The notes under the pieces: generated by a model
What the model was told of the DNA's origin: nothing
The model's database searches: none
The model's input: the letters and a program-made list of their open reading frames with translations, nothing else
Position numbers and translations under genes: made by a program
Assembly (NCBI GenBank): GCA_021371965.1
Contig: JAJFVE010000064.1
Location: 1 to 36,218 of the forward strand
Direction of reading: 5' to 3'
Length of the DNA stretch: 36,218 nucleotides
DNA from: Planctomycetaceae bacterium
Lineage (GTDB): Bacteria > Planctomycetota > Phycisphaerae > SM23-33
Shown here: positions 4,080-19,078 of the stretch, piece after piece
How the letters are laid out: each line of letters starts with the position of its first letter
How positions within the stretch are numbered: the stretch's first letter is position 1

Positions 4080-4122
4080 CACGGGCGGGACGCCCGTGGG
4101 ACTCACGGGCAAGATGCCCGTG
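4080..4122. repeat. Tandem pair of CACGGGC palindromes
   Basis: CACGGGCG-GGA-CGCCCGTG (4080-4098) and CACGGGCA-AGA-TGCCCGTG (4104-4122) are two 8-bp hairpins with 3-nt loops separated by 5 nt. The innermost pair changes from G-C to A-T between copies, keeping the stem intact. Confidence 0.65.
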
Positions 4123-4142
4123 CTACTGCGGCGTGCTACTAC

Positions 4143-4171
4143 TTGCATCCGCCGACGCAACTGAGTAGATT
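4143..4171 (+). promoter_or_regulatory. Weak candidate promoter for the kinase/fucI operon
   Basis: TTGCAT (4143-4148), a 17-nt spacer and TAGATT (4166-4171) lie 31 nt before the kinase ATG. Spacing is ideal but both boxes are only partial matches. Confidence 0.3.
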
Positions 4172-4202
4172 TTTCTGTCTGCAAACTGACGGAAGGACGG
4201 TC

Positions 4203-5669
4203 ATGGGCGAACAATATCATTTTCTCGCGTTGGACTTCGGCGCATCGAGCGGCCGCGGCGAACTGGTTACCCTCGAGGACGGCGTCCTGCACCTGCAGGA
4301 GATCCACCGCTTCGAGAACCGCCCGGTGAAGATGGGCGGCACGATGTACTGGGACTTCCCCTATCTCTTCGGCGAAGTCATCGAGACCCTCAAGGTCGTC
4401 GCCAAGCGCGGGATCAAGCTGGCCGGCATCGGCGTCGACACCTGGGGCGTGGACTTCGGCCTGCTGGCGGCCGACGGAAAGCTGCTGAGCAACCCCGTCC
4501 ATTACCGCGACACCCGCACCGAAAATATCCACGCCTACTCAGACCCGATCATGTCGCGCGACGAAGTCTTCGCCGCAACGGCGATGGAGCCCTGGACCAT
4601 CGGCTCGCTGTTTCAGCTTCTGGCGATGCAGCGCGACAACAGCCCGCTGCTCAAGGCCGCCGACACGATGCTGTGGATGGCCGACCTGTTTCGCTACTTC
4701 CTCTGCGGCAAGAAAGTCGCCGAGCTGTCGCTGGCGCAGACCTCGTGCCTGATCGGAACCAACCGCAAACTCTCCAGCGAAGTCGTCAAGCGCTTTAAGC
4801 TCAAACGCAAAATGTTCCCCCAGCTCGTCCGCCCGCCGCTGGTGCTGGGCGACCTGCTGCCGGAAATCGTCCAGGCCGCCGGCCTGAGCGGACCAGTGCC
4901 GGTGATCGCCACGGCCGGTCACGACACCGCCGCGGCTGTGGCGGCGGTTCCCGCCCGCGGCAGCGACTGGGCGTTCCTGTCCTGCGGAACGTGGAGCATC
5001 ACCGGCACGCTGGTCAAGCACCCCGTCGCCACGCCCGAGGCCCTGAAGATGGGCTACTCGTGCGAGTGCACCATCGGCGACTGGTTCACCTGCAAGAACA
5101 TTCCGGGCCTGTGGGTCGTGCAGGAGCTGCGACGCAAGTGGCACAGCAGCGAAGACCCCTGGGACTTCAACCGCATGGTCGCCGAGGCCGCTGCGGTCAG
5201 CGAGGTTCCGCTGTTCGACGTGAACCACCCCACCCTGATGGCCCCGGCCGACATGGAAGACGCCCTGCGAAAGCTCCTGCCCGGCGGCGCTGCGCTGGAC
5301 CGCGGCCACCTGGTGCGATCGGCGCTGGAGAGCCTGGCGGCCGAGTACGCCCGCTCGATCGACGCCATCGCAACCCTGACCGGCAAACGCCCCAGCGCGC
5401 TGTACATGGTCGGCGGCGGGATCAAGAACAAGCTGCTCTGCCAGCTCACCGCCGACGCCTGCAACATGACCGTCTACGCCGGCGTGGACGAGTGTACAGC
5501 CGTGGGCAATGGCCTGGGCCAGGCGCTGGCGCTGGGCATCATCAAGACCAAGGGCGACATCCGCAAGATCGCCCGCGCCTCATTCGAAATGTCGACGTTC
5601 ATGCCTGAAAATCGCCAGCATTGGCAAGCCAAGCTGGCACAGTATGCCCAGTTGCAGGCGGGCAAATAA
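4203..5669 (+). CDS. FGGY-family rhamnulokinase-type sugar kinase
   Basis: This 488-residue ATP-dependent kinase should phosphorylate a deoxyketose, L-rhamnulose or L-fuculose, at C1. The N-terminal phosphate-binding motif is LDFGASSGRGEL. RhaB-like signatures follow: HRFENRPV, the stretch IGVDTWGVDFGLL with the catalytic-base Asp, and YRDTRT. The C-terminal half has TAGHDTAAAVAAVP, FLSCGTWSITG and MVGGGIKNKLL, the ADP-binding part of the fold. Length equals E. coli RhaB (489). The ATG at 4203 follows GGAAGGACGG, so the extended reading upstream through repeats is rejected. fucI follows after 42 nt, so the kinase probably acts on the isomerase product, L-fuculose; sequence similarity alone would say rhamnulokinase. 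Confidence 0.9.
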   Translation: MGEQYHFLALDFGASSGRGELVTLEDGVLHLQEIHRFENRPVKMGGTMYWDFPYLFGEVIETLKVVAKRGIKLAGIGVDTWGVDFGLLAADGKLLSNPVHYRDTRTENIHAYSDPIMSRDEVFAATAMEPWTIGSLFQLLAMQRDNSPLLKAADTMLWMADLFRYFLCGKKVAELSLAQTSCLIGTNRKLSSEVVKRFKLKRKMFPQLVRPPLVLGDLLPEIVQAAGLSGPVPVIATAGHDTAAAVAAVPARGSDWAFLSCGTWSITGTLVKHPVATPEALKMGYSCECTIGDWFTCKNIPGLWVVQELRRKWHSSEDPWDFNRMVAEAAAVSEVPLFDVNHPTLMAPADMEDALRKLLPGGAALDRGHLVRSALESLAAEYARSIDAIATLTGKRPSALYMVGGGIKNKLLCQLTADACNMTVYAGVDECTAVGNGLGQALALGIIKTKGDIRKIARASFEMSTFMPENRQHWQAKLAQYAQLQAGK

Positions 5670-5711
5670 CACCGCACCGGAAAAACTAACCCAGACGCAG
5701 AAGGAGAGATC

Positions 5712-7574
5712 ATGGCAAGCAACGCACCGAACTTTGAGAAGCTTTCCGCCACCAAACGAAAGTTTGCGACTTTCGACGGCACGCTGGTAGGCCCGACGCC
5801 GACGATCGCCCTGACGCCCGTGGCCGACGGCCGCGTGGGCGCCTATGAAGACAACGTCGACCGCACCTGGGCGATGACCCAGCGCGTGTACGACCTGATC
5901 ACCAGCAAGGTCAAGCTGCCCGACGGGCGCCCCGTGCGCGTCGTCGTCGCGCCGGAAATCGTCTACGGGCCCCGCACCGGCGCCATCGCCCAGAAGTATT
6001 ACGCCGAGCAGAACGTCGGCGCCAACATCTGGATCAGCCGCTCGTGGTCGTACTCGGACGAGCTGATGAGCGCCGCGGCCGGCGTGGGCTCCACCGAGTG
6101 GATCCAGGCCGCCTACGGACTCAACCAGACCGACCGCCCCGGCGCGGTGTGGCTCAAGGCCTTCACCGCCGCCATGGACGAGAAGAAGCGCCCGATCTTC
6201 TGCATCTACTCCCCCGACCTGGAAGACGAGACCAAGGGCCTCAACGACTTCGTCACCGAGCGCCTGGTCCGCTTCGCCCGCTGCGCCGCGGCCGTCATGT
6301 ACATGCGCGGCAAGAACTACCTGTCGATCGGTTCGGTGTCGATGGGCATCATCGGCTCGGACGTTCGCCGCAACATGATGGAACAGTATCTGGGCATGGG
6401 CTCGGTGTCGGTGGACATGGTCGCCCTGCGCGGCCGCATGGACAAGGGCCTGTTCGATCACGAAGAGCTGGCCGCTTCGATCAAGTTCTTCAAGAAGTTC
6501 AAGATGGACTTCGGCCCGGGCAACCGCCCGCAGCCGCCCGAGAAGCTCATTGAAGACGTGATGAAGATGACGCTGATCGTGCGCGACTTGATGATCGGCA
6601 ACCCGCGCCTGGCCGACTCGAAGGTCGCCAAGGCCCAGGGATTTGTCGACAACGTCGAGCTGGCCCAGGGCGCCAACGCCATCGCCTCGGGCACGCAGGG
6701 GCAGCGCCAGTGGACGGACCTGTACCCTAACTTCGACGTGGCTGAGAGCCTGCTCAACAGCTCCTTCGGCTGGGAAGGCCCGCGCACGCCGTTTATCGTG
6801 GCCACCGAAAACGACAGCAAGAACGCCATCGGAATGCTCGCGGCGCACCTGCTGACCGGCGGCATGCCGCAGCTCTTCGCCGACATCCGCACCAACTGGA
6901 CGCCCGAGAGCATCAAGGCCGCCACCGGCAAGGATGTCACCAAGATCTGCCCGCAGGGCATCATCGACAAGCGCAACAGCGGCGCCGGCGCGCTGGACTA
7001 CGCCGTCAACGCCCTGGAGTTCGCCGGCAAGAACTGGAAGGACCTCTCAGCCGCCGACGCCTGGGACGCCATCCGCTCCAGTTCGGCCGCCCATAATAAG
7101 CTCGTCAAGGCCGCGATGGACGGCACGACGTACATGGGCGCGGGCCTGACGTACTTCCCCGGCGACGGCCTCTCGAGCCACTACCGCACCCCCGGCGGCG
7201 TGCCGATGACCGCCTACCGCTACAACGCCGTGGGCGACATGCTGACCTGCTCGATCGTCGAAGGCGAGACGGTCGAACTGCCCGTCAGCGTGGCTGACCA
7301 CATCAGCCGCGTGACGGACAAGACCTGGCCCGAGAGCTACTGGACGCCCCGCGGCATGAGCAGCTTCGAGTACATGAGCCGCATCGGACCCAACCACGAC
7401 GCCAACAGCTTCGGCCTCATTGGCGCGGACATGATCACGTTCAACGCGATGCTGCGCATCCCGGTGGACATGCACAACGTCTGCTCGTGCGAAATCTTCC
7501 GCCCGACGATGTGGGACCGCTTCGGCGGCGACGACTACCGCGCCTGCCAGTACCTCGGCGCGCTGTACGCCTGA
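5712..7574 (+). CDS. fucI: L-fucose isomerase
   Basis: It interconverts L-fucose and L-fuculose (the family also acts on D-arabinose), the first catabolic step in the cytoplasm, and is Mn-dependent. The 620-residue protein aligns in my memory along the full E. coli FucI, with SIGSVSMGIIGSDV, GTQGQRQWTDLYPN, NSSFGWEG and FGLIGADMITFNAMLRIPV. Predicted metal and catalytic residues are Glu366 (VATENDS), Asp391 (LFADIRT) and His588 (DMHNV). It is slightly longer at the N-terminus than the 591-residue E. coli enzyme. AAGGAGAG lies 5-6 nt before the ATG. It is co-directional with the kinase upstream and is followed by a strong terminator, so the two form a compact operon. Confidence 0.95.
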   Translation: MASNAPNFEKLSATKRKFATFDGTLVGPTPTIALTPVADGRVGAYEDNVDRTWAMTQRVYDLITSKVKLPDGRPVRVVVAPEIVYGPRTGAIAQKYYAEQNVGANIWISRSWSYSDELMSAAAGVGSTEWIQAAYGLNQTDRPGAVWLKAFTAAMDEKKRPIFCIYSPDLEDETKGLNDFVTERLVRFARCAAAVMYMRGKNYLSIGSVSMGIIGSDVRRNMMEQYLGMGSVSVDMVALRGRMDKGLFDHEELAASIKFFKKFKMDFGPGNRPQPPEKLIEDVMKMTLIVRDLMIGNPRLADSKVAKAQGFVDNVELAQGANAIASGTQGQRQWTDLYPNFDVAESLLNSSFGWEGPRTPFIVATENDSKNAIGMLAAHLLTGGMPQLFADIRTNWTPESIKAATGKDVTKICPQGIIDKRNSGAGALDYAVNALEFAGKNWKDLSAADAWDAIRSSSAAHNKLVKAAMDGTTYMGAGLTYFPGDGLSSHYRTPGGVPMTAYRYNAVGDMLTCSIVEGETVELPVSVADHISRVTDKTWPESYWTPRGMSSFEYMSRIGPNHDANSFGLIGADMITFNAMLRIPVDMHNVCSCEIFRPTMWDRFGGDDYRACQYLGALYA

Positions 7575-7591
7575 TAATGCATCCGTAACAC

Positions 7592-7629
7592 AAAAGGGCC
7601 CGGGAGCAGCGAGCTTACCGGGCCCTTTT
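7592..7629 (+). terminator. Intrinsic terminator of the kinase/fucI operon
   Basis: AAAAGGGCCCGG at 7592-7603 pairs perfectly with CCGGGCCCTTTT at 7618-7629 around a 14-nt loop, ending in TTTTCTT. It lies 17 nt past the fucI stop. Confidence 0.9.
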
Positions 7630-7647
7630 CTTGCGCTGACGGATTTA

Positions 7648-7750
7648 CAATTCCCAATTTCCGATTTCCAATTTAACAACAAAGATGCGCCGGACTGCGC
7701 TGAGTCTTAATTTCTTTTCAATTGGAAATTGCAAATTGGAAATTGGAAAT
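7648..7750. repeat. A/T-rich AATTGG-type inverted repeat
   Basis: The left arm (about 7648-7674) is made of CCAATTTCC-type words, and the right arm (7719-7750) of AATTGGAAATTG-type words, roughly reverse complementary. It stands out from the surrounding GC-rich DNA and lies just upstream of the GH43 start. The open frame through it is not treated as coding. Confidence 0.6.
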
Positions 7751-7774
7751 GCCTGTGCTACCTTCCGCACCATC

Positions 7775-9388
7775 ATGATATATCCAAACCCGATCATCCC
7801 CGGCTTTTATCCCGACCCGAGCGTCTGTCGCGTAGGCGAGGACTATTATCTCGTCACCAGTTCGTTCGAGTACTTCCCCGGCGTGCCGATCTTTCATAGC
7901 CGCGATCTCTATAACTGGCGGCAGATAGGGTACGTGCTGAACCGGCCCGAGCAACTGCCTCTGGACAAGAGCCCCATCTCGTGCGGGATATTTGCCCCGA
8001 CGCTGCGGCATCACGCCGGGCGATTCTACATGATCACCACCAATGTGTCCTTCGGCGGCAACTTCCTGGTGACGGCCAGCGACCCGGCGGGGCCTTGGTC
8101 GGCGCCGGTTGCGGTGGACTCGCCGGGGATCGATCCCTCGCTGGCGTTCGACGACGACGGCGCGTGCTACATCACCGGCAACTGGTGCGACGACGGCCGC
8201 GGGGGCAAAGGCATCGGCGTGGCCCGCATCGACGCGGCCTCGGGCAAGCTGCTCGAACCGATGCGGTTCATCTGGTCCGGCACGGGCGGCCAACACGCAG
8301 AAGGGCCGCACCTGTACCACATCGGGCGGTGGTGGTATCTGCTGATCGCCGAGGGCGGCACGGAACTGTGCCACATGATCACCATCGCCCGAAGCGTTAG
8401 CCCGTACGGGCCCTTCGAGTCCTGCCCGCACAACCCGATCCTCACGCACCGCTCGCTGCCGTCGCGCATCCACAGCATCGGCCATGGCGACCTCGTGCAG
8501 GACCACCGCGGCAACTGGTGGATGGTGTTCCTGGGCACGCGACATTCGCTCTTCATGTACCCGACTCGCCACCATCTCGGGCGCGAGACCTTCCTGGCAC
8601 CGGTGACGTGGACCGGGGATTCCGGGGTCACTGAAGTGACCCGGCCGATGGACCTCGGTTGGCCTGTGATAAACTTTGGGCGTCCGATTGAATTGCAGAT
8701 GGATGTCCCCACCGCCCTGTCGCCGCATCCGGTCCCGCCTGCGCCCACACGCGACGACTTTGATTCGCCCGACTTCGCGATGAGTTGGAACTGGTTGCGA
8801 AACCCTGCGATGGAGAATTACTCCCTCACGCAGCGCCCCGGGTGGCTCACGCTCAAAGGGTCGGCCGTCACGCCGGATGCGGAAGACTCCCCCACCCTGA
8901 TCTGCCGCCGCCAGCAGCATTTCAACTGCCGGGCAGCCGCCCTGCTGGACTTCGCCCCCGCGGCCGAGAACGAAGAGGCGGGTATCTCCGTGCGGATGAA
9001 CGACCGGCACCACTACGACCTGGCCGTGACGGTTCGCAACGGCAAGCGCTGCGCGATCGTCCGCCAGCGCATCGGCGACATCGCCCAGGAAACAGCGTGC
9101 CACCCGCTGCCGGACGAGAAAGGGTGCCACGCACAACCCCGTTGTGCGTGTCCCCGAGTCGAACTGAGCATCGAGGCCACGCGCGACGAATACGCCTTCT
9201 TTGCCACGGTCGGGCAGGACAAGATTCCCCTGGGCAAGGCCTCGGCGGCCTACCTCACCAGCGAGGCCGCCGGCGGGTTCACCGGCGTGATGATCGCCCT
9301 CTACGCCACCGGCTGGGGCAAGCCCTGCACAGCGGCGGCCGCGTTCGATTGGTTCGACTACATCCCCCTTCCCGATGACGAGCGGTAG
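7775..9388 (+). CDS. Glycoside hydrolase family 43 (beta-xylosidase/arabinofuranosidase type)
   Basis: The 537-residue enzyme has an N-terminal five-bladed beta-propeller opening NPIIPGFYPDPSVCRVGEDYY, where Asp14 is the expected general base. Asp120 (GIDPSLAFDD) is the expected pKa modulator and Glu176 (HAEGPHLY) the general acid. A C-terminal beta-sandwich (about residue 330 onward) matches the accessory domain of xylosidase-like GH43 proteins. No signal peptide is seen, so it should act on imported oligosaccharides. The ATG at 7775 is chosen because the upstream frame is repeat DNA; its Shine-Dalgarno is weak. About residues 450-461 (GCHAQPRCACPR) are encoded by a palindromic repeat also found at 35.0 kb. 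The URO-D-like gene starts one base after its stop. Confidence 0.9.
   Translation: MIYPNPIIPGFYPDPSVCRVGEDYYLVTSSFEYFPGVPIFHSRDLYNWRQIGYVLNRPEQLPLDKSPISCGIFAPTLRHHAGRFYMITTNVSFGGNFLVTASDPAGPWSAPVAVDSPGIDPSLAFDDDGACYITGNWCDDGRGGKGIGVARIDAASGKLLEPMRFIWSGTGGQHAEGPHLYHIGRWWYLLIAEGGTELCHMITIARSVSPYGPFESCPHNPILTHRSLPSRIHSIGHGDLVQDHRGNWWMVFLGTRHSLFMYPTRHHLGRETFLAPVTWTGDSGVTEVTRPMDLGWPVINFGRPIELQMDVPTALSPHPVPPAPTRDDFDSPDFAMSWNWLRNPAMENYSLTQRPGWLTLKGSAVTPDAEDSPTLICRRQQHFNCRAAALLDFAPAAENEEAGISVRMNDRHHYDLAVTVRNGKRCAIVRQRIGDIAQETACHPLPDEKGCHAQPRCACPRVELSIEATRDEYAFFATVGQDKIPLGKASAAYLTSEAAGGFTGVMIALYATGWGKPCTAAAAFDWFDYIPLPDDER
9123..9150 (+). repeat. Dispersed palindrome copy inside the GH43 coding sequence
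   Basis: A 28-nt unit whose core is CACGCACAAC-CCC-GTTGTGCGTG (9128-9150, 10-bp perfect stem) preceded by GGTGC. The reverse complement of 35023-35050 matches it at 27 of 28 positions, differing only in the loop. Here it is read in frame. Confidence 0.8.
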
Positions 9389-9389
9389 C

Positions 9390-10520
9390 ATGACGCCCAA
9401 AGAACGAATCAAGCGGCAGGTGCTGGGGCAGGAAGTGGATCGCATTGCGACCGTCGGCGGGTGGATGCTCAGCGCCGGCGTACTGGCCGAGTTCGCCGGC
9501 GTGAGCGTCGAGGCATTCCTGGCCGACGCGCAGGCAATGACGATCCGCGCGTACAAGAACCTCGGCGCCGATGCGCTGGTGGGCGGGCTGATCGTGCCCA
9601 ATGTGGCCGACCAGGTGCGCGCAGGGCAGGTCGAGGAGGCCAAGTTCTCCCGGTTCACGCCCGAGGACCTTCTCAAGCGGGCCGAGCAGGCCCCGGCGTC
9701 GGAGCAGGAATTCCTGGCCAAGATCGACCGCCCCAAGATGCGGGCCGACTACGCCAACTGGATCGGCGAGCAGCGCAAGAGCTTCGACGGGATGGAACTG
9801 ATCCCGACGTTCTGGCACGTCGTGCCCAACTTCATGATGTACTGCAGCTACGGGTACGAGGCATACCTGGCCGCCTGCGCGATGTACCCTGACGCCGTCG
9901 AGCGGATCTACTGGGAAGGCGCCATCGACGCCCGGGCGACCAACTCGATCCTCGTCGACGTCTATCGCGACCTGGACCTGCCGCCGATCCTCTTCACCGG
10001 CCATGATATGTGCATCAACACCGGCACGATGGTCAGCCCGCAGTTCCTGCGCGACCGTTACTGGCCGCTGTGCAAGTACGCCATCGAGCCGCTCGTCGAG
10101 GCGGGCATCCGCGTGATCTACCACTGCGACGGCAACGTCATGCCCATCATCGACGACATCATCGCAGCGGGCTTCTCCGGCTTTCAGGGCTTCCAATATG
10201 AGTACGGCGTGGACCCCTTCGCCTTCTCGAATCGCCGCAGCCTGCAAGGGCAGGAGTTCCTGTACATGACCGGCATGAACATCTCCCGCACGCTGCCCTG
10301 GGGCACGCCGGATGACGTGCGCGAGGAACTCGAGTACGTGCTGGATTACACCAACGGCGGCCGCCAACTGCTGCTGTTCTCCAGCAACGTGATCGGCCCG
10401 GAAGTGCCCGCCGCCAACGTCAGAGCCGCCTACGACTTCTGCCACAACTACAATCCCAACCAACCCCGCCCCACCGCCGGAAAAGCCCGCCCGTGGCCGT
10501 GGGGCGCGAAGCACGCATGA
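9390..10520 (+). CDS. Uroporphyrinogen decarboxylase-like (URO-D fold) protein
   Basis: The 376-residue protein opens MTPKERIKRQVLGQEVDRI, a typical beginning for URO-D-superfamily proteins outside haem synthesis, and has GHDMCINTGTMVSPQFLRDRYWP and VIYHCDGNVMPIIDD. The superfamily includes corrinoid and methylcobamide methyltransferases (MtaA/CmuA) whose zinc is held by a His-x-Cys pair and a later Cys. Here the first motif is HCD, and the region usually carrying the second Cys reads SSNVIGPE, so classic zinc ligands look incomplete. An ATG at 9375 overlapping GH43 is possible, but 9390 gives the usual family start. It appears to be co-transcribed with GH43, hinting at a role in sugar metabolism, but the reaction is unknown. 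Confidence 0.85.
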   Translation: MTPKERIKRQVLGQEVDRIATVGGWMLSAGVLAEFAGVSVEAFLADAQAMTIRAYKNLGADALVGGLIVPNVADQVRAGQVEEAKFSRFTPEDLLKRAEQAPASEQEFLAKIDRPKMRADYANWIGEQRKSFDGMELIPTFWHVVPNFMMYCSYGYEAYLAACAMYPDAVERIYWEGAIDARATNSILVDVYRDLDLPPILFTGHDMCINTGTMVSPQFLRDRYWPLCKYAIEPLVEAGIRVIYHCDGNVMPIIDDIIAAGFSGFQGFQYEYGVDPFAFSNRRSLQGQEFLYMTGMNISRTLPWGTPDDVREELEYVLDYTNGGRQLLLFSSNVIGPEVPAANVRAAYDFCHNYNPNQPRPTAGKARPWPWGAKHA

Positions 10521-10527
10521 CTTCATA

Positions 10528-11472
10528 TCACGGCCGCGACTTGTGCGGGGCGGGCGTGAACCAGTCCGTCGCCAGCGGCTTGTCGCTGAGCAGGTCCAGC
10601 GTCACGCGGCAGGGCTCGATGTTGCCCTGAATCTTGGCTCGGTCGAAGACGATGCGGCGGGGCAGGCCGCTGTGCAGGTCAGCCCATATCTCGATCGTCT
10701 CGGGCCCTTTGACCTGCCGCGAGTTCCTCCGCACCAGCACGTGCCGCAGCAGTTGCCCGCCGGAGGGCAGAGCCGTTTCATCCAATCGCTCAAGCGTGTA
10801 GTTGACCTTGATTCGCTCGAGCGTCTGGTGCAGATCGCTGAAAGGCACATCGGCCATCAGCGCCGGCATGGGGATGCCTCCGGCGCCCGGGCCCTGGCGC
10901 GTCTCGGCCAATTCACCGCGGCGGATGCGCCAGCTCTGGCGGCCGTCGAAGCCATCGTAGATGACGCCGCCGTTGGGGTCGCGGCGGACGAGCAGATACT
11001 GCCGCCCGTCGCGCAGGTACAGCGTGGCATCGTCGAGTCCGGGGCGCGGGATGCGCGGGCCCGAGCGGTCGCCGTCACCTGGCCGCGGCGGACGGTCGTC
11101 GCCCTCGGGCGGCGGAGGCTCGTCGAGGTCCTGCATCGCGATGTGATAGGTGCGGTCGCCCGGCTTGGCCAGGGCCCCGATGATGTCATTGAGCGAGGCC
11201 ATTGCCCGCGAGGGCGTATTGAAGACCCATATTCCGACAGCGGCCAGAAGCATCGCCGCTGCCGCATACGCGGCGCGGCGCGCCCACAGCGCCACGCGCC
11301 GCGCGGGCCGGGCCGAGGCGGCGATGGCCTCCACCACGCGCTGCACGCGCCGCCGGCGGTGCTGGGCCGACTGCTCATCGTACAGGTGCGTCAGCAAGGC
11401 GTGCACCAGCCTCTCATCGGCTGTCGCCGCCTGCAGTTCCGGGTTGTCAGGTGCGCTTTTCATCCGATTCAT
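10528..11472 (-). CDS. Membrane anti-sigma factor candidate
   Basis: The ATG at 11472 overlaps the TGA of the ECF sigma gene as ATGA, implying translational coupling. The 314-residue protein has about 60 charged cytoplasmic residues, one membrane span (about residues 60-84, AAYAAAAMLLAAVGIWVF), a Pro/Asp/Arg-rich linker and a C-terminal beta-rich domain (YHIAMQDLD, TIEIWADLHSGLPRRIVFD) resembling LolA/RseB-like sensor domains. No zinc-binding ZAS motif is seen at the N-terminus. Position directly behind an ECF sigma is the main reason for the anti-sigma call; the sequence itself is not a recognised family. Its stop is 7 nt from that of the convergent URO-D-like gene. Confidence 0.7.
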   Translation of the reverse strand: MNRMKSAPDNPELQAATADERLVHALLTHLYDEQSAQHRRRRVQRVVEAIAASARPARRVALWARRAAYAAAAMLLAAVGIWVFNTPSRAMASLNDIIGALAKPGDRTYHIAMQDLDEPPPPEGDDRPPRPGDGDRSGPRIPRPGLDDATLYLRDGRQYLLVRRDPNGGVIYDGFDGRQSWRIRRGELAETRQGPGAGGIPMPALMADVPFSDLHQTLERIKVNYTLERLDETALPSGGQLLRHVLVRRNSRQVKGPETIEIWADLHSGLPRRIVFDRAKIQGNIEPCRVTLDLLSDKPLATDWFTPAPHKSRP

Positions 11473-12041
11473 TCCGGGCGGGAAAGAATGCCCTTTCGCT
11501 CCAGGCATCGCGCCAATTGCAGCCGCGCTCGCTGGAGCTGTTTCTGGACGGCGTCACTCGTCGAGGCCAGGTGTTCGGCAATCCACTGCGTCGTGCGATT
11601 CTGCTGGTAGTGCAGTTCGATTGGCTGGCGATAGAGCGGTTCGAGCCGCTCCACGCAGTCCTTCAAGGCCACGATCTTCTCATCGAGCGTATCGCCGCTG
11701 TGATGTTCGATCTGACTCACGCGCTGATCGAGGTGCTCCAGCACGCGCTCGTCGCCCAGCGCCACCTCGCGGCCGCTCTTGCGATAGTGCATCAGCACCA
11801 GCCGCCGCGCGATCCCGCGCAGCCATGCCCCGAACGGCCGGGCACGATCAAACTCGGCGATCTTGCGCCAGGCGATCAGCAGCGTCTCCTGGAAGAGATC
11901 GTCCACCGCCGCCGCGTCGCCGACGGCCGCGCGCAGAAATGCCGTCAACGAGTCGGCGTTCTCGTTGGCGAGAATCTCAAACATCGCCAGGGGCTCGATA
12001 CCGCCCGGCGCGAGGCTGGCTGGCAAGTCGCTGCCGCTCAT
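11469..12041 (-). CDS. ECF-type RNA polymerase sigma factor
   Basis: This 190-residue sigma has region 2 (LTAFLRAAVGDAAAVDDLFQETLLIAWRKIAEFD, with RPFGAWLRGIARRLVLMHYRK) and region 4 (LEPLYRQPIELHYQQNRTTQWIAEHLASTSDAVQKQLQRARLQL), and lacks region 3, as expected for the ECF group. The ATG at 12041 follows GGAAAGG by 6 nt; a GTG further upstream is less likely. It is coupled to a membrane anti-sigma and transcribed divergently from a two-gene secreted operon at 12197, which it may control. The region between the two directions holds a long imperfect dyad. Confidence 0.93.
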   Translation of the reverse strand: MSGSDLPASLAPGGIEPLAMFEILANENADSLTAFLRAAVGDAAAVDDLFQETLLIAWRKIAEFDRARPFGAWLRGIARRLVLMHYRKSGREVALGDERVLEHLDQRVSQIEHHSGDTLDEKIVALKDCVERLEPLYRQPIELHYQQNRTTQWIAEHLASTSDAVQKQLQRARLQLARCLERKGILSRPE

Positions 12042-12083
12042 AGGCTGCCTTTCCACAGACTATTGTCACTGGGCCAGAGCCCC

Positions 12084-12122
12084 CGGACAAGAAAATGAGT
12101 GATTGTCAGGATTTTCTGTCCG
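12084..12122. promoter_or_regulatory. Imperfect dyad between the ECF sigma and the secreted operon
   Basis: CGGACAAGAAAAT (12084-12096) pairs with ATTTTCTGTCCG (12111-12122) with one bulged base and a 14-nt spacer. It sits in the only promoter-bearing gap of the divergent pair, so it is an operator or leader-hairpin candidate. Confidence 0.4.
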
Positions 12123-12196
12123 CGGCCGTCACGGCGGCGCAATAGGAGGGGAAGTCATCGACTAGCCGGAACAACCAAGACTCCGAAGGAGAGACT

Positions 12197-14350
12197 ATGA
12201 GACATGCATTCGCTGTAATCGTACTGGGTATTCTGGCCGCAGCGGCCTGGGCGCAGCAGGGCGACAGGCCCGACCCGCCGGCGCAGAATGGCGAGCGGGA
12301 TCAGGCTCAGTCTTCCGGCGGCGACGTCAAAACCCAGGTCAAGACGATCCTGTCGAAGTACGGGTCGGGCTCGCTGACGGCCGATCAGGCCAAGGCGATC
12401 AACAAGGCGTTTCGCGACGCGGGGCTGCGAAACGGTCCGGACCTCAAGCAAGCCATCGAGGACGCGGGGTTCAGCAGCGAAAAGATCAGCGAGCTCGATC
12501 CCCCGCCGGATCGCGCCGAGGCAGGGGGCGGCCGGAACGCCGAGCGTCAAGGCCAGGGGCAGGGCGCCAGCGATAACCATCGCGGCAAGGGCGACGGCCA
12601 GACAGGCGGACGCAAAGGGCGCGGGCAGGCCGGTGAGGGCAAAGCCCGCCAGGGCGGCGGGGGCTACAACATCGAACAGGCGATCTCCGACCGCGCGCAG
12701 CTCAACACCATCGCCTTCGACGGCTTGGCGTTCCTCACAGGCGATCTGGGCGGCAACACCTTCCTGCCGCCGGGCAAGGTGGCGGACTTCTGCGGTTTCC
12801 AGTACATGCGCGACGTCGACACCAACCAGCTCGGCCACAACACGTCGTTCGTGCCGCGCGCGGCCAACAACATGCTTTACGTCCTGACCGACGCGCAGAA
12901 GGCCCAGCTTGTGACCCTGGCCAAAGAGCAGGAGAAGATGCTGACGGATTTCGCATACAAGCGGTTTCCGCTGGTCAAAGCGTTCTGCCGCCAGCTCGCC
13001 GGTGATATTCCCACTGGCAGCACCGGCCTGAGCCGCGAGGCGGTGATGAAGTACACCGCCGGCGTGTTCGAGATTGACGGGGCTCTCAGCTATCGCCGCG
13101 CCGAGGTCCTGGGCGGCATCGTCCGAGCCCTCAGCGACAAGCAGAAGGCGTACCTGGCGAAGATGAAGTTCAATAATTCCGCCACGTGGCCCGAGATGAA
13201 AGACCAGATGGACAAGCGCAGCCTCTCGCACACCGCCCACGTGGCCGTCATGACCTACGCCAGCGAGATGTTCAGTTGGTACGCCGGCAACGTCGAGGCC
13301 GACGTGTACTTCTGCCCCGAGCGCCACGCGACGTACTTCGGCTCGTTCTACATGAAAGACATCCCGGCGATGGGCAACCCGAACTACTCGATCAGCACTT
13401 CGCTCACCGGCGACAGCGGCGAGGCGTTCCTGGCGGCCCTGAGCGACACCCAGCGAGGGCTGGTGACGGCGCTGGTGGACCAGCAGCGCAACGACCTCAA
13501 GGAGATCGTCTCGGTGCGGCGGCAGATCGCCACGGAGCTGCGCCGCTTCATGAAGGAATCCTCCATCGACAAGGCCAAGGTGATGTCGCTGTCCAAACGC
13601 TACGGCGAACTCGACGGCGAGATCTCGTACTTCTACGCCACGGCCTTCTCGGAGGCAGCCAAGACGCTGACGGCCGACCAGAAGAAGACGCTGCTCAAGC
13701 TTCGCAACCTCGACGCCAAGTACACCTGCAAGGGCGCGTACCTGTACTCGCGAGCGATCGACATGCCTGCGATCCCGAACACCGACTTCCTCTTTGGGAA
13801 AGGCCAAGCTACAAAGGCAGCGCCGGCCGCCAAAGCATCCTCGATCGCCGTCAAGAACAGCTCGACGTTCGTGCTCCGCAGCCCGGCGGTGGCCGACAAG
13901 GGACCGCTTCCCAAGGAGTTCACCGGCGACGGCGCGGCCGCCACGCTGCCGCTGGAATGGTCAGGGGCGCCCCCGGCCGCCAAGAGCTTCGCCCTGGTCA
14001 TGCACCACGTGGACCCGCAGGGCAAAACCAAGTGGTACTGGGTGCTCTACAACATCCCCGCCGGCACGACGAGCCTGGCCAAGAGCGTCAAAGGAGTCGG
14101 CACGCTTGGCAATAATTCGGTCAACGGCCGCCTGGGATACGCCCCGCCCCACTCGAAGGGCCCCGGCGCCAAGACGTACATCTATACCCTCTACGCCCTG
14201 GTGGCGCCGGTACAAGTTGATGTCGAGCCAGCCGACGTGACTCGCGACGTGCTCCTGGCGGCGATGAAGGATAAAATCCTCGCCAGCGCACGACTGAGCG
14301 TCGTCTATACGCGCAACGTCCAGCAGGCGCCACAGGAAGACCCGCAATGA
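12197..14350 (+). CDS. Secreted protein with duplicated helical domain and C-terminal PEBP (YbhB/YbcL) domain
   Basis: The 717-residue product has a signal peptide (about residues 1-19, ending AWAQQ), a helical segment with SLTADQAKAIN, and a Gly/Arg/Gln-rich linker (about 95-155). Two related segments follow, starting near DFCGFQYMRDVD (about 197) and VYFCPERHATYFGSFYMKD (about 370). Each is followed by an LTDAQ or LSDTQ helix resembling LTxxQ repeats of Spy-like periplasmic proteins; a further LTADQKK occurs near 493. Residues from about 555 form a phosphatidylethanolamine-binding/Raf-kinase-inhibitor-like domain (LPLEWSGAPPAAKSFALVMHHVDP, KWYWVLYNIPAG). AAGGAGAG precedes the ATG. Its TGA overlaps the next ATG, so the two are coupled. 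Ligand and role are unknown. Confidence 0.85.
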   Translation: MRHAFAVIVLGILAAAAWAQQGDRPDPPAQNGERDQAQSSGGDVKTQVKTILSKYGSGSLTADQAKAINKAFRDAGLRNGPDLKQAIEDAGFSSEKISELDPPPDRAEAGGGRNAERQGQGQGASDNHRGKGDGQTGGRKGRGQAGEGKARQGGGGYNIEQAISDRAQLNTIAFDGLAFLTGDLGGNTFLPPGKVADFCGFQYMRDVDTNQLGHNTSFVPRAANNMLYVLTDAQKAQLVTLAKEQEKMLTDFAYKRFPLVKAFCRQLAGDIPTGSTGLSREAVMKYTAGVFEIDGALSYRRAEVLGGIVRALSDKQKAYLAKMKFNNSATWPEMKDQMDKRSLSHTAHVAVMTYASEMFSWYAGNVEADVYFCPERHATYFGSFYMKDIPAMGNPNYSISTSLTGDSGEAFLAALSDTQRGLVTALVDQQRNDLKEIVSVRRQIATELRRFMKESSIDKAKVMSLSKRYGELDGEISYFYATAFSEAAKTLTADQKKTLLKLRNLDAKYTCKGAYLYSRAIDMPAIPNTDFLFGKGQATKAAPAAKASSIAVKNSSTFVLRSPAVADKGPLPKEFTGDGAAATLPLEWSGAPPAAKSFALVMHHVDPQGKTKWYWVLYNIPAGTTSLAKSVKGVGTLGNNSVNGRLGYAPPHSKGPGAKTYIYTLYALVAPVQVDVEPADVTRDVLLAAMKDKILASARLSVVYTRNVQQAPQEDPQ

Positions 14351-17300
14351 AGCATCTTGCAGCGGCCATCGTGATTGCAGCGACCTTCGCCTGCGCCACG
14401 GCGCAACAGGAAGGGCGCCCGCCGCGGCGACGCCCCACGAGCATGCCGGCGGCGGTCAAACCGCTGCAGGCGCTGTCGGTGCTGGTCGCGCGGCCGACAG
14501 ACTCGGCCGTCACGCTTAATATCCTCTCGGCCGCCGGGGCAGAGGCGCTGGTCGAGTACGGCCCCGGGGGCGGGGAATCTGCCCGGACGGCCCCCTTCAA
14601 GCTCGTTGCTGCGTCTCCGATGGAAGTGCAGCTGCAGCGCCTCACGCCCGACAGCCGCTACAGCTACCGCCTGCTTCTGCGCAGAAGCGACAATGAGCCG
14701 TTCACCGCAGCGGCCGAGGGCGGATTCCAGACCCGGCGCGCCCCCGGCAGCACGTTTATCTTCGAGGTGCAGGGCGATTCGCACCCCGAGCGAGTTCACC
14801 AGTTCGACCCGAATCTGTACGTGCAGACGCTCAAGGCGGCGGCCGCGGACAAACCGGATTTCTACTTCACCATGGGCGACGACTTCAGCGTCGACGCCCT
14901 CGATACGATCGGCGAGAAGACGGTCGAAGCCCTATATCGAAACCAGCGGGCGTATCTCTCGCTCGTCGGCCGCGTCGTGCCGCTCATGCTCGTCAACGGC
15001 AACCACGAACAGGCGGCGATGTGCAATCTCGACGGCAAAAAGGACAATGCGGCCGTTTTGGCGCAGACCAGCCGCAACCGCTTCTTTTCGCCGCCGGCGC
15101 CCGACGAGTTCTACAGCGGCGACAAGCAGCCGGTGGACCACATCGGTCTGCTGCGCGACTACTATGCCTGGACTTGGGGCGACGCTCTGTTTATGGTGAT
15201 CGACCCATATTGGCACAGTCCCAAGCCGGTAGACAACGTGCTCGGTGGCGGGCCCAAGAATCGCGACCTGTGGGACGTTACGCTCGGCAAGGATCAGTAC
15301 GACTGGCTTCGCCAGACGCTGCTATCCAGCAAGGCCAAATACAAGTTCGTCTTCACGCACCACGTGCTGGGGACGGGGCGCGGCGGGGTAGAGCAGGCGG
15401 GCCTGTTCGAGTGGGGCGGACGCGACAAGAAGGGCGCCGACCAGTTCGCCGCCCGCCGTCCGGGGTGGGAGATGCCGATCCACCAACTCATGGTCAAGGC
15501 CGGCGTGACGATCTTCTTCCAGGGCCACGACCACGTCTTCGCCCGCCAGCTGCTCGACGGCGTGACCTACCAGACGCTGCCCGAGCCGGCCGACCCCACG
15601 TACACGCTCTACAACAAGGGAGCCTTCCGCAGCGGCGACGTGCTGCCCAGTTCCGGCCGCCTGCGCGTGACCGTCGGCCCGCAGACGGTGCGCGTGGAGT
15701 ACGTCCGCTCGTACCTGCCCAAAGACGCCACGGCCGAGCACCCCGATGGCAAAGTGGCCTTTGCCTACGAAGTTCCCCCCGCACGCGGCGGAGCGAAAGA
15801 CTCGCCCTCGCCCACTCAACAGCAGTCGGTGGCGATCCAGGCGCGGCCGCTGGCCGAGGGTTTCGAATTCACCGAGGGCCCGGCCGTCGCCAAGGACGGC
15901 AGCGTCGTCTTCTCCGACGTGCACGCCAGCCGCACCTATCGATGGGCCGACGGCAAGGCCGCGCCGTTTCGCGAAAAGACCGGCGGCGCCAACGGCCTGG
16001 CGTATGACAAGGACGGCAAGTTGCTGATCTGCGAGGGCGCCAACGGGCGCGTCGTGTCGCTCGATTCCGGCGGCAAGATCACGGTGGTAGCCGACCGATA
16101 TGCCGGCAAGCGGTTCAATCAGCCCAACGATCTGTGGATCGATCCGCACGGCGGGGTGTACTTCAGCGACCCGCTCTACGGCCGCGGCGAGAAGGTGCAG
16201 GACGGCGAGCATGTCTATTACGTCTCGCCCGACCGCACGCGCGTCGTGCGCGTCATCGACGACATGGTGCGTCCCAACGGGCTGTGCGGCACGCCCGATG
16301 GCAAGACGCTCTACGTGGCCGACCACGGCGCGGGCAAGACCTGGCGCTACACGATAAACGCCGACGGAACTCTGGCCGGCAAGACGCTTTTTGCCTCCAG
16401 CGGATCCGACGGCCTCAAGGTCGATGCCGACGGCAACGTCTATCTGACCACGGACGCGGTCGTGGTCTACGACTCTTCTGGCACGCGGACCGCCCGTATC
16501 GAGGTCCCGCAGCGGCCGACCAATCTCTGCTTCACCGGTCAGGATCGCAAGACGCTGTTCATCACCGCCGGGACGGCGATCTATTCGGCCTCCCTTGCCG
16601 GCGGCGGCCCGGCCTGGCGCGGCCAGACGCAGGGCCGCGCGCGAGGGCCGCAGGGCACTTTCAACACGCAGACGCCCGCTCACGCGATGGATGTGATCCT
16701 GGGCCGGCCGACCGACACGAGCGTCACACTGAGCGTCCTGTCGTATGCCGACGCCAGGGTCCGCGCGCAATACGGCACGAGCAAAGACAAGCTGACTGCG
16801 GCGACGGACGTGCAGGACATGCTTAAGGGCCAGCCCAAAGAAATCGTCTTGGACCATCTGGCCGGCGATACGCAGTACTACTACCGGCTCTTTGACGCCG
16901 CCGGCCCGGCGCTGCCGGGAGGCGAAGGGACCTTCCACACGCAGCGCGCCGACGGCAAAGAGTTCCTCTTTACCGTTCAGGCCGACTCGCACCTTGATGA
17001 AAACGCCCAGAGCGATCTCTATGCGCAGACGCTCAAGTCAGCCGCCGCCGACGGGCCGGACTTCCATGTCGATCTGGGCGACACCTTCATGGTCGACAAG
17101 CATCCCTCGCGCGAAACCGCGGCCGCCCAGTACCTGGCCCAGCGGTACTACCTGGGCCTGATCGGCCGCGCCGCGCCGGTGTTTCTCACGCTGGGCAACC
17201 ATGACGGCGAGGACGCCAAGCTTCTCCGCGGCGACGACAGCCTCGGCGCCTGGGCCACCGCCATGCGCAGCCGCTATTTCCCCAACCCGCAGCGCAGCGA

Positions 17301-17931
17301 CTTCTACGGCCCCAGCACGCTGGGGAACTACTATCGCTGGCAATGGGGCGAAGCGTTGTTCGTCGTGCTCGATCCGTATCGCTACTCCACCGGCCGCAAG
17401 GGCGACAACTGGCGAGCCACGCTGGGGCGCCAGCAGTACGATTGGCTTAAGAGCACGCTGGAAAGCAGCAAAGCGAAATGGAAGTTCGTCTTCTGCCACC
17501 AACTCGTCGGCGGGGCCGACGAGGCCGGGCGCGGCGGCATCGAGGCCGCCGGCGGCTATGAATGGGGCGGCGCCAACGCCGACGGCACGCGCGGCTTTGA
17601 GAAGAACCGTACCGGCTGGCCCATGCCCATTCACGACTTGCTGGTCAAGAACCACGTGACGATCTTCTTCCACGGCCACGACCACTTCTACGCCAGGCAG
17701 GATCTCGATGGCGTAATCTACCAACTGGTCCCCCAGCCCGCCTGCCCCGCCGGGCGCGCCGACCACGGCGCCAGATACGGCTATGCCAAAGGCGTGATCA
17801 AACCCAGCTCTGGGTACCTGCGCGTGAAGGTCTCACCCTCGCAAGTGCAGGTGCAATACGTTCAGCCGCAGGCAACCTCAGCCGGCGCCGCCCGGCTGGC
17901 CCACAGCTATCAGGTCCAGGCGCGGCCGTAA
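14347..17931 (+). CDS. Secreted phosphoesterase / SMP-30 / phosphoesterase fusion
   Basis: The 1194-residue protein has a signal peptide (to about residue 19, ACATAQQ) and three enzyme-like modules. A fibronectin-like N-terminal domain leads into a calcineurin-like metallophosphoesterase: GDSH (about 142-145), MGDD (about 178), GNHE (about 218) and GHDH (about 393). Residues about 498-755 form an SMP-30/gluconolactonase beta-propeller (LAEGFEFTEGPAV, NQPNDLWIDPHGGVYFSDP, RPNGLCGTPDGKTLYVAD). A second fibronectin-like domain then precedes a second phosphoesterase with ADSH, LGDTF, GNHD (about 951) and GHDH (about 1110). All metal-ligand motifs are kept in both phosphoesterases. Export and purple-acid-phosphatase-like layout suggest hydrolysis of phosphate or lactone esters outside the cytoplasm. 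The start overlaps the preceding stop (ATGA). Confidence 0.9.
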   Translation: MKHLAAAIVIAATFACATAQQEGRPPRRRPTSMPAAVKPLQALSVLVARPTDSAVTLNILSAAGAEALVEYGPGGGESARTAPFKLVAASPMEVQLQRLTPDSRYSYRLLLRRSDNEPFTAAAEGGFQTRRAPGSTFIFEVQGDSHPERVHQFDPNLYVQTLKAAAADKPDFYFTMGDDFSVDALDTIGEKTVEALYRNQRAYLSLVGRVVPLMLVNGNHEQAAMCNLDGKKDNAAVLAQTSRNRFFSPPAPDEFYSGDKQPVDHIGLLRDYYAWTWGDALFMVIDPYWHSPKPVDNVLGGGPKNRDLWDVTLGKDQYDWLRQTLLSSKAKYKFVFTHHVLGTGRGGVEQAGLFEWGGRDKKGADQFAARRPGWEMPIHQLMVKAGVTIFFQGHDHVFARQLLDGVTYQTLPEPADPTYTLYNKGAFRSGDVLPSSGRLRVTVGPQTVRVEYVRSYLPKDATAEHPDGKVAFAYEVPPARGGAKDSPSPTQQQSVAIQARPLAEGFEFTEGPAVAKDGSVVFSDVHASRTYRWADGKAAPFREKTGGANGLAYDKDGKLLICEGANGRVVSLDSGGKITVVADRYAGKRFNQPNDLWIDPHGGVYFSDPLYGRGEKVQDGEHVYYVSPDRTRVVRVIDDMVRPNGLCGTPDGKTLYVADHGAGKTWRYTINADGTLAGKTLFASSGSDGLKVDADGNVYLTTDAVVVYDSSGTRTARIEVPQRPTNLCFTGQDRKTLFITAGTAIYSASLAGGGPAWRGQTQGRARGPQGTFNTQTPAHAMDVILGRPTDTSVTLSVLSYADARVRAQYGTSKDKLTAATDVQDMLKGQPKEIVLDHLAGDTQYYYRLFDAAGPALPGGEGTFHTQRADGKEFLFTVQADSHLDENAQSDLYAQTLKSAAADGPDFHVDLGDTFMVDKHPSRETAAAQYLAQRYYLGLIGRAAPVFLTLGNHDGEDAKLLRGDDSLGAWATAMRSRYFPNPQRSDFYGPSTLGNYYRWQWGEALFVVLDPYRYSTGRKGDNWRATLGRQQYDWLKSTLESSKAKWKFVFCHQLVGGADEAGRGGIEAAGGYEWGGANADGTRGFEKNRTGWPMPIHDLLVKNHVTIFFHGHDHFYARQDLDGVIYQLVPQPACPAGRADHGARYGYAKGVIKPSSGYLRVKVSPSQVQVQYVQPQATSAGAARLAHSYQVQARP

Positions 17932-17993: not shown

Positions 17994-18067
17994 GGGCGTT
18001 TAGCTCAGTTGGTTAGAGCAATTCGTTTACACCGAATAGGTCGCTAGTTCGAATCTAGCAACGCCCA
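17994..18067 (+). tRNA. tRNA-Val (anticodon UAC)
   Basis: All four arms pair: acceptor GGGCGTT with AACGCCC, D stem GCTC/GAGC, anticodon stem ATTCG/CGAAT around TTTACAC (anticodon TAC at 18028-18030), and T stem GCTAG/CTAGC around TTCGAAT. The discriminator is A67 of this copy (18067). CCA is not encoded and must be added by nucleotidyltransferase. The gene stands alone between the phosphoesterase fusion and a convergent sigma gene. Confidence 0.97.
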
Positions 18068-18085
18068 CTGAGTTTCTACGCGCAT

Positions 18086-18142: not shown

Positions 18143-19078
18143 CTAGACGTGCAGGTACTCGCTGTCGAGGGCGGCTCGGATCTTGGCCAGGGCGGAGTTC
18201 TGCAGTTGGCGAACCCGCTCGTTGGTCAGCCCGACCAGCTTGCCGACCTCGGCCAGTGTGCGCTTCTTCTCGACGGTGCCCAGGGCGAAGCGCGCCTGGA
18301 CGATCTTGCGCTCGACGTCCGTCAGGTGCGCCCGGTTCTGCGAGAGGATCTCCTTCAGGGCGTCGACGGAGTTGTCGCGCTGGATCTCGTGGCGCTTCTC
18401 GTCGAAGTCGCTACGCTCCATCTCCGGGTCGTACTCGACGGGGAAATGGCTGCGATACCGCCCGGTCTTGGTCGCGAGCCTGTTAAAGCTCTTGAGGATC
18501 GCACGGCAGGCGTAGGTCGAGAACTTGAAGCCCATCGAGGCGTCGAACTTCTCGATGCTCCGCAGCAGGGCCATGTTGCCCTCGGAGACGATCTCGCCGA
18601 AGTCCACGTTGGGGATGCGCGTCCGCTTGGCCATCGCCAGCACCAAGGCCATGTTCGCCCTGACCAGCGCCGAGCGGCACTTCATGACCCGCGTGAACCA
18701 TTCAGTCATTTCGGCCGCCCGGGACAGGCTCGAGCGGCGCTTCTGCTGGGCGATCAGCTCAGCCAGCCGCCGGCGGGCGTAGTTGTACCGCAGGAACAGG
18801 TGCGTTTCCTGGCCGGGCTTGAGTGCGACGCGGCGCTGCCTGGGCAGCGTAGCGTCCTCGTGCACCTCGGGGAAATGCGTCCATGCAGGCACGGGGATCT
18901 CGCTGCCGGGGCCGAAGAACCGCTCTTCGGCGTCGCTCTTGTCGAACTCGACGCTCTCGACATAGTCCATCGCATCGGGGATGCGTTCATAAAGGCGGCG
19001 TTGTTCCATGGTCAGCCCGTCCATCTGCTCGCGGGCCCTGTCTGTTTGATTCTCTGTCAGTTTCTCAAGGGTACTCAT
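18143..19078 (-). CDS. Divergent sigma-70 family sigma factor
   Basis: The 311-residue protein has a region 1.2-like N-terminal part (RRLAELIAQQK), and region 2 (VRANMALVLAMAKRTRIPNV, then DFGEIVSEGNMALLRSIEKFD and FKFSTYACRAILKSFNRL). It then has region 4 (LTDVERKIVQARFALG to VGLTNERVRQLQNSALAKI). The linker between them is only about 45 residues, so region 3 is shortened or missing. The -10-reading helix (YACRAILKSFNRLATKTG) lacks the YATWWIRQAI pattern of housekeeping sigmas, so promoter preference should differ. AAAGGTAAGG precedes the ATG. No anti-sigma gene is adjacent. It is an alternative sigma of unknown regulon. Confidence 0.88.
   Translation of the reverse strand: MSTLEKLTENQTDRAREQMDGLTMEQRRLYERIPDAMDYVESVEFDKSDAEERFFGPGSEIPVPAWTHFPEVHEDATLPRQRRVALKPGQETHLFLRYNYARRRLAELIAQQKRRSSLSRAAEMTEWFTRVMKCRSALVRANMALVLAMAKRTRIPNVDFGEIVSEGNMALLRSIEKFDASMGFKFSTYACRAILKSFNRLATKTGRYRSHFPVEYDPEMERSDFDEKRHEIQRDNSVDALKEILSQNRAHLTDVERKIVQARFALGTVEKKRTLAEVGKLVGLTNERVRQLQNSALAKIRAALDSEYLHV

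What the first reader, a model, noticed from the sequence alone, without database searches (positions are those of the whole stretch)
11469..17931. ECF sigma/anti-sigma unit divergent from a two-gene secreted operon of unusual fusions
Seen: an ECF sigma and a coupled single-span anti-sigma candidate face a coupled pair of exported multidomain proteins, with a dyad in the shared gap. Known: ECF factors often control adjacent genes. Inferred: an envelope-stress or nutrient-sensing regulon that deploys a PEBP-domain protein and a double phosphoesterase. I do not know a described system with this composition.
Basis: partly seen in the sequence, partly recalled or inferred. Interest (0 to 1): 0.7.

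Follow-up and report, generated by a model that had tools for sequence, protein, structure and literature searches.

The report
Travelling envelope cassette with swappable regulators
A sensor-controlled pair of exported proteins in this window belongs to an apparently undescribed gene cassette, seen in many unrelated bacteria and some archaea, that links a doubled stress-protein-like fold to an altered PEBP domain and phosphoesterases and sits beside different kinds of envelope sensor in different hosts.

Summary
In detail: an ECF sigma with coupled anti-sigma faces a coupled pair of exported fusions, and the dyad between them recurs in 3 of 3 gaps of close relatives. In 80 loci picked by CORE sequence alone (20 named phyla), 46 have PEBP and 31 a metallophosphoesterase of this type within 6 kb; 20 have both, 23 neither. 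The ECF is one of several neighbouring regulators: 29 of 80 loci have a two-component gene, 14 an ECF. Against ECF dependence, 6 of 7 other genomes found with this anti-sigma family lack CORE. The cassette PEBP has lost its family's five-residue signature (0 of 173 domains keep it; in 12 carrier genomes 4 of 4 PEBPs elsewhere keep it). Most likely an extracytoplasmic stress or detoxification module with exchangeable envelope sensors; neither control nor function is shown experimentally. No paper found in the searches made describes the cassette.

The parts
10528..11472 (-). anti-sigma candidate, 314 aa: short N-terminal cytoplasmic part, one membrane span, about 220 aa outside; ATG overlaps the sigma stop
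   Evidence: 129 relatives at E<=1e-3 among 7989 candidates scored
11469..12056 (-). ECF sigma factor (TIGR02989 type), 195 aa, GTG start
12084..12122 (.). inverted element CGGACAAGAAAA ... TTTTCTGTCCG in the divergent gap, with counterparts in L029 and L093
12197..14350 (+). exported CORE-PEBP fusion, 717 aa (whole gene)
12317..12496 (+). small N-terminal helical domain (residues 41-100)
   Evidence: block pLDDT 83-97
12659..13801 (+). CORE: two LTXXQ-like halves (residues 155-535); H214, N215, C373, E375 and others identical in 76 of 76 rows
13868..14314 (+). PEBP domain (residues 558-706) with H,D,Y,K,T where the family has D,D,H,H,R
14347..17931 (+). exported phosphoesterase-SGL-phosphoesterase fusion, 1194 aa (whole gene), ATGA overlap with the gene before
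14452..15786 (+). metallophosphoesterase domain a; metal motifs read as DSH, GDD, GNHE, HH, GHDH
   Evidence: motifs read by eye from the translation
15838..16602 (+). SMP-30/gluconolactonase-like domain
   Evidence: SGL, 146.6 bits
16642..17928 (+). metallophosphoesterase domain b; metal motifs read as DSH, GDT, GNHD, H, GHDH
   Evidence: motifs read by eye from the translation

Best explanation
This is a horizontally moving extracytoplasmic cassette, in the window under a local envelope sensor. Shown by comparison: CORE (a doubled LTXXQ/Spy-type protein), a non-canonical PEBP domain and metallophosphoesterases recur together as fusions or neighbours; a membrane-linked regulator often lies just upstream and its type changes (two-component system, ECF with anti-sigma, ECF with Ser/Thr kinase). 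Inferred for the window: the anti-sigma holds the ECF at the membrane, an envelope signal releases it, and the ECF transcribes itself and the exported operon from the dyad. Inferred function: CORE binds or senses damaged envelope material or a toxic compound, perhaps signalling back to the sensor as CpxP, ZraP and CnrX do (recalled), while the PEBP and phosphoesterase domains act on the compound or its products.
For: Loci were picked by two CORE peptides only; 229 of 232 stretches were relatives and the best 80 kept. Within 6 kb of CORE: PEBP in 46 of 80, phosphoesterase in 31, both in 20, either in 57. Hits per 100 kb at 0-5 against 5-10 kb: PEBP 8.2 v 0.44, phosphoesterase 7.45 v 1.1, HlyD 2.1 v 0, kinase 3.9 v 1.3. 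Of 57 loci with at least 4 kb upstream, 36 have a regulator within 6 kb; the kinase is upstream in 20 of 25 loci, the ECF in 12 of 14. Kinase sensor regions: 19 of 21 match one from another CORE locus, e.g. Clostridium magnum v Chlorohelix 59% (4 of 25 kinases dropped for lacking the motif used). Plasmid NZ_CP128401: RR-HK-CORE-PEBP-phosphoesterase-phosphoesterase. LTXXQ matches 52 of 76 CORE domains; the two halves match at E 6e-17. CORE tree: 41 label changes among 20 named phyla, at least 19 needed. Dyad in 3 of 3 gaps. Contig lengths: 8 coincidences between anti-sigma and CORE-PEBP hits, one of them the window, 0.58 expected.
Against: No expression, binding or phenotype data. 23 of 80 loci have neither PEBP nor phosphoesterase within 6 kb (some are short contigs), so CORE may also act alone. 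38 of 80 loci showed no regulator within 6 kb. Kinase enrichment is about threefold and ASST about twofold; SGL and FGE are not enriched. Several of the 19 sensor matches are weak (23-32% identity). No Spy/CpxP structure was among the fold matches listed. Most carriers are MAGs, where wrong binning can look like transfer. Sulfatases, ASST and phosphoesterases fit nutrient scavenging too.
Confidence: 0.45

Rival explanations
1. Nutrient-scavenging module: the exported phosphoesterases, with sulfatase, arylsulfotransferase and lactonase-like neighbours, release phosphate, sulfate or carbon from organic esters; the sensor reports substrate or starvation.
For: Two phosphoesterase domains with metal motifs that read as intact; SGL 146.6 bits; ASST-type hits within 5 kb in 20 of 80 loci, sulfatase in 5; distant relatives of the pair lead an operon with sulfatases and a PEBP protein in L096 and L097, and L095 has a PEBP-phosphoesterase protein about 1.6 kb from its anti-sigma match; the window lies beside sugar-use genes.
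Against: The part used to find the loci is a LTXXQ-type protein, not a recognised hydrolase; HlyD-type export genes are neighbours in 8 loci. I noticed no recurrent Pho or sulfate transport genes, but did not search for them and most neighbour ORFs stayed unlabelled.
Confidence: 0.25
2. The exported cassette is real but the ECF pair is an incidental neighbour: it controls itself or genes elsewhere, and the dyad is only its own autoregulatory site.
For: 0 of 6 other genomes with the anti-sigma family has CORE; in L093 the close pair (57%) with its dyad faces an HlyD-type gene; in L111 a 36% relative has no cassette; close ECF-CORE pairing was seen in two loci only, window and L029.
Against: The dyad lies in the divergent gap of all 3 close relatives; its half-site has one exact copy in genome G001, at this gap (the reversed control pattern also has one copy, so the count is at chance level and only the place speaks); regulators sit upstream of CORE in other phyla; seven contig coincidences besides the window.
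Confidence: 0.2
3. Surface or structural role: the proteins build a coat or appendage and the enzyme-like domains are adhesive or inactive.
For: SGL-bearing ORFs of about 1,500-3,200 aa in several loci; multi-domain fusions.
Against: Phosphoesterase metal motifs look complete; invariant polar loop residues in CORE suggest a ligand site.
Confidence: 0.1

Closest known systems
Spy/CpxP/ZraP (LTXXQ, PF07813) and CnrX-type (Metal_resist, PF13801) periplasmic proteins
   Same: Window CORE alone scores 27.3 for LTXXQ (cut-off 24.3); 52 of 76 relatives match at E<=1e-3; paired LTxxQ-like motifs; often beside a two-component system or ECF
   Different: Tandem duplication in one chain, long conserved polar loops, fused to PEBP; no Spy/CpxP structure among the fold matches listed
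PEBP/YbhB/YbcL family (PF01161)
   Same: Pfam 72.8 bits; predicted fold matches CT736 3n08 with TM 0.89-0.90 by target length
   Different: Signature D,D,H,H,R replaced (0 of 173 keep it); lies in a recurrent cassette, whereas Tsoy and Mushegian (PMC8793217, part 1 of section 7 read) write that family genes are rarely in conserved operons
ECF sigma with membrane anti-sigma
   Same: Sigma regions 2 and 4 only, coupled anti-sigma with one span, divergent operon, conserved element in the gap
   Different: Anti-sigma has no Pfam match and, by eye, no Hx3Cx2C motif; its outer domain of about 220 aa has no known fold assigned
CnrYXH (cobalt-nickel resistance; recalled; CnrY is named as a class II anti-sigma in passages of PMC7406223)
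   Same: ECF, anti-sigma and a Metal_resist/LTXXQ-like exported protein at one locus
   Different: Here the LTXXQ-type protein is in the divergent operon, doubled, and fused to PEBP

Membership tests
ECF sigma factor | Sigma-70 regions 2 and 4 without region 3 | tested here: met
   Pfam r2 and r4_2 over cut-off, 195 aa; TIGR02989 just over cut-off
ECF-linked anti-sigma | Recognised anti-sigma domain | tested here: inconclusive
   No Pfam match for the window protein; NF052375 20.5 bits against 100; 1 of 31 family members (L096) matches DUF4880 over its cut-off
ECF-linked anti-sigma | Coupled to sigma, one membrane span | tested here: met
   ATGA overlap; one hydrophobic stretch, residues 66-86, modest maximum 1.76
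ECF-linked anti-sigma | Binds and inhibits the sigma | not testable with these tools
   needs protein or reporter assays
LTXXQ (Spy/CpxP) family | Profile match over curated cut-off | tested here: met
   CORE alone 27.3 bits v 24.3, though the full-length protein scores 22.6; 52 of 76 members at E<=1e-3, 24 not
LTXXQ (Spy/CpxP) family | Fold like solved Spy/CpxP | tested here: inconclusive
LTXXQ (Spy/CpxP) family | Chaperone or sensor activity | not testable with these tools
   needs purified protein
Canonical PEBP/YbhB | PEBP fold and profile | tested here: met
Canonical PEBP/YbhB | Five polar residues D,D,H,H,R | tested here: not met
   Window H,D,Y,K,T; 0 of 173 domains keep the set, 4 of 4 PDB references do with R or H last; in 12 genomes 4 of 4 non-cassette PEBPs keep it, 7 of 7 cassette PEBPs do not
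Calcineurin-like metallophosphoesterase | Profile match and metal motifs | tested here: met
   PF00149 69.4 bits, 2 stretches; motifs read from the translation; activity not tested
CnrYXH-type sensor complex | Metal_resist-like protein encoded together with the anti-sigma | tested here: not met
   CORE is in the divergent operon; metal binding not tested

The most novel reading that the evidence does not exclude
The cassette is a new class of extracytoplasmic system: a single-chain 'double Spy' protein that senses and binds a toxic or damaged phospho-ligand, coupled to an unnoticed PEBP subfamily with a rebuilt active site and to phosphoesterases, and inherited as a mobile unit whose transducer (kinase, or sigma/anti-sigma) is exchanged when it enters a new phylum. 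It would give the PEBP family, whose biochemical role is debated, a genetically tractable pathway.
Probability: 0.2. Interest if true: 0.85.

Novelty: new variant of a known kind. Interest (0 to 1): 0.6.

Why it matters
A gene set that recurs in 20 named phyla, including methanogenic archaea, while its neighbouring sensor type changes, points to a shared envelope task that has no name yet. Sources label the protein 'PEBP family uncharacterized protein' or 'Spy/CpxP family', so it is easy to overlook. It also offers a recurrent gene cassette for PEBP proteins, where a published survey found few, and a PEBP subgroup without the residues proposed there as an active centre. Cultured carriers exist (Clostridium magnum DSM 2767, Pontiella sulfatireligans F21), so the question can be tested.

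Tried and rejected

Considered and dropped: SGL and FGE as fixed members of the cassette (0.60 v 1.33 and 2.1 v 1.8 hits per 100 kb near and far), though SGL domains in giant neighbouring ORFs are undercounted by distance. Reading the dyad as one -35/-10 pair: the distance between half-sites differs between window and L029, so I leave open whether it is two promoters or an operator. Placing the window: of 5 named anti-sigma relatives 4 are planctomycetes and 1 is labelled Acidobacteria (the phylum of Pirellulimonas is recalled), citrate synthase finds 56-60% matches in 4 of 199 Planctomycetota genomes, and CORE lies nearest Verrucomicrobiota rows without a starred branch; not settled.

Weak points of my counts: one search scored only the 7998 candidates sharing most words, listed 120 of 4524 hits, and those may include proteins with LTXXQ or PEBP alone; the 80 loci are the best of 229; several come from one MAG or short contigs; CORE copies in one locus are not independent; the ORF caller and the one-round profiles are my own and may take in related families (ASST above all). 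In some searches the second D of the PEBP signature is placed differently by different alignments; the other four positions are not. The 173 domains count the window twice (as P0001 and WIN) and include three from L095-L097, which lack CORE. Literature: one search failed on a sign; searches listed no paper on this cassette as far as titles and abstracts show; they cover open-licence PMC text only.
Full report
What is in the window. The ECF sigma (11469-12056, minus) passes the Pfam and TIGR02989 cut-offs. The anti-sigma (10528-11472, minus) starts inside the sigma stop codon. On the other strand, a 717-aa exported protein (12197-14350) and a 1194-aa exported protein (14347-17931) overlap by ATGA. 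Pfam finds Metal_resist, LTXXQ (just under its cut-off in the full-length protein) and PEBP in the first; metallophosphoesterase (two stretches) and SGL in the second.

Residues 155-535 of the first protein form a strongly conserved domain, called CORE here. Modelled alone from 76 sequences it has pLDDT 95.9 and pTM 0.93. Its two halves are homologous (profile comparison E 6e-17), and 52 of 76 relatives match LTXXQ at E<=1e-3, 24 do not. It is therefore a tandem form of the type known from Spy and CpxP; that these act as dimers is recalled, and the idea of a single-chain dimer is inference. No solved structure matched with confidence. Residues H214, N215, C373, E375, K194, R205 and others are identical in 76 of 76 rows.

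The cassette. A scan of the genome collection (one genome for each of 84,980 species) with two CORE peptides gave 232 stretches, 229 of them relatives; the best 80 were kept. They come from 20 named phyla, 12 of the 80 having no phylum named. Within 6 kb of CORE, 46 of 80 loci have PEBP and 31 a phosphoesterase of this type; 20 have both, 23 neither. Density falls from 8.2 to 0.44 (PEBP) and from 7.45 to 1.1 (phosphoesterase) per 100 kb between 0-5 and 5-10 kb. The parts appear fused, as in the window, or as separate neighbours, as in L029 and on a plasmid of Candidatus Chlorohelix, where the genes run response regulator, kinase, CORE (annotated hypothetical), YbhB-like, metallophosphoesterase, metallophosphoesterase. 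The CORE tree of 100 rows needs 48 changes over 22 labels, or 41 over the 20 named phyla when the 13 unplaced rows and the window are left out, where 19 is the least possible. This fits horizontal transfer, though wrong binning of MAG contigs can add to it. Within one phylum CORE is rare: 4 of 294 Planctomycetota genomes, three of them already known.

The regulators. A two-component gene lies within 6 kb in 29 of 80 loci, an ECF in 14, a window-type anti-sigma in 3, any regulator in 42; among 57 loci with at least 4 kb upstream, 36 have one. Kinase density near CORE is about three times that of the far flanks, which alone is modest. A stronger sign is the kinase sensor regions: of 25 kinases 21 carried the motif used to cut the sensor out (4 dropped), and 19 of 21 match a sensor from another CORE locus, 59% between Clostridium magnum and the Chloroflexota plasmid and about 52% between Kiritimatiellales and Lentisphaerae MAGs, but some only at 23-32%. 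The window's ECF type with CORE is seen in L029 (67% and 58%); L010 has a more distant ECF/anti-sigma pair (31% and 30%). Eight contig lengths, one of them the window's, are shared by the 120 listed anti-sigma and 120 listed CORE-PEBP hits; shifted lists give 0.58 on average.

The dyad. CGGACAAGAAAA...TTTTCTGTCCG (12084-12122) has counterparts in L029 and L093, in the gap in front of the same type of ECF. The element was defined after seeing these gaps. The half-site has one exact copy in the 4.9 Mb genome of L029, at that gap, and none in G155; the reversed control pattern also has one copy in each, so the count is what chance gives and only the position is telling. In the window a half-site with up to two mismatches is not rare (4 found, 1.94 expected). 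The case rests on the pair and its place.

Counter-examples. Seven other genomes were found with this anti-sigma family. G001 is the genome of L029. In the other six CORE was not found (0 of 6; these genomes may be incomplete). G155 (L093, 57%) faces an HlyD-type gene and the contig ends there. G331 and G379 (L096, L097; 28% and 26%) lead an operon of unknown protein, sulfatase, PEBP protein and sulfatase; in L096 the PEBP protein also carries SHD1 and YHYH. G261 (L095, 32%) has a PEBP-phosphoesterase protein about 1.6 kb from the match. G369 (L094, 36%) lies next to a sulfatase-like ORF (my reading). G417 (L111, 36%) has no cassette gene. So this ECF pair is not tied to CORE, although non-canonical PEBP proteins recur beside its distant relatives.

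The PEBP domain. Alignment to four PDB PEBPs shows the signature D,D,H,H,R replaced: 0 of 173 domains keep it, the commonest set being H,D,Y,K,T in 84. As a control, PF01161 was searched in 12 genomes that carry CORE: 11 hits in 8 genomes, of which 4 away from the cassette keep D,D,H,H with R or H, and 7 on the CORE contigs do not. Tsoy and Mushegian (PMC8793217; abstract, sections 5 and 6 and part 1 of section 7 read) report multiple replacements only in mitochondrial L35/L38 and plant PYBHB, and few conserved operons. The subgroup seen here is not mentioned in what I read.

Function. I favour an envelope stress or detoxification module (0.45; lowered from 0.5): LTXXQ-type protein, local membrane sensors, HlyD-type neighbours in 8 loci within 5 kb and none at 5-10 kb, and plasmid carriage near an ArsR/SmtB-family gene. 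Scavenging of phosphate or sulfate esters is the main rival (0.25), an incidental ECF neighbour the next (0.2, raised from 0.15 for the same reason). Nothing here tests activity.

Verdict. The parts are of known kinds; the combination was not described in any paper listed by my searches as far as titles and abstracts show, and these cover open-licence text only.

Noticed in passing
window 3927-10520: FGGY kinase, L-fucose isomerase-like, GH43 and URO-D/MtaA-like genes in a row, looking like a sugar-use cluster.
   Followed up: no
window 18143-19078 (-): Sigma-70-like protein of 311 aa whose best NCBIfam match is MzaA (95.4 bits against a cut-off of 800), with RpoS and RpoD models close behind; an odd small sigma factor.
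   Followed up: no
window 2368-3171 (+): Protein of 267 aa with only sigma-70 region 4 recognised by Pfam.
   Followed up: no
window 17994-18068 (+): tRNA-Val (tac) right after the cassette, a possible insertion site for mobile DNA.
   Followed up: no
L096:8438-15843 and L097:4072-11363: Shared operon ECF, anti-sigma-like, unknown 250-259 aa, sulfatase, PEBP protein (SHD1 and YHYH also found in L096), sulfatase; its PEBP also lacks the usual signature.
   Followed up: partly
L006:1-3465, L024:5801-9913: CORE and SGL in one ORF by my ORF caller.
   Followed up: no
L015, L016, L027, L029, L047, L069, L076: Two CORE genes side by side that fall in different tree branches, suggesting a working pair; in L053 the two are sisters instead.
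   Followed up: partly
L061, L073, L075, L077: CORE in methanogenic archaea (Methanomicrobiales, Methanothrix), one clade in the tree; L061 and L073 also have phosphoesterases nearby.
   Followed up: partly
L017:4749-6394: ECF, zinc-finger anti-sigma and a Metal_resist protein in a row next to CORE: another regulator type beside the same cassette.
   Followed up: no
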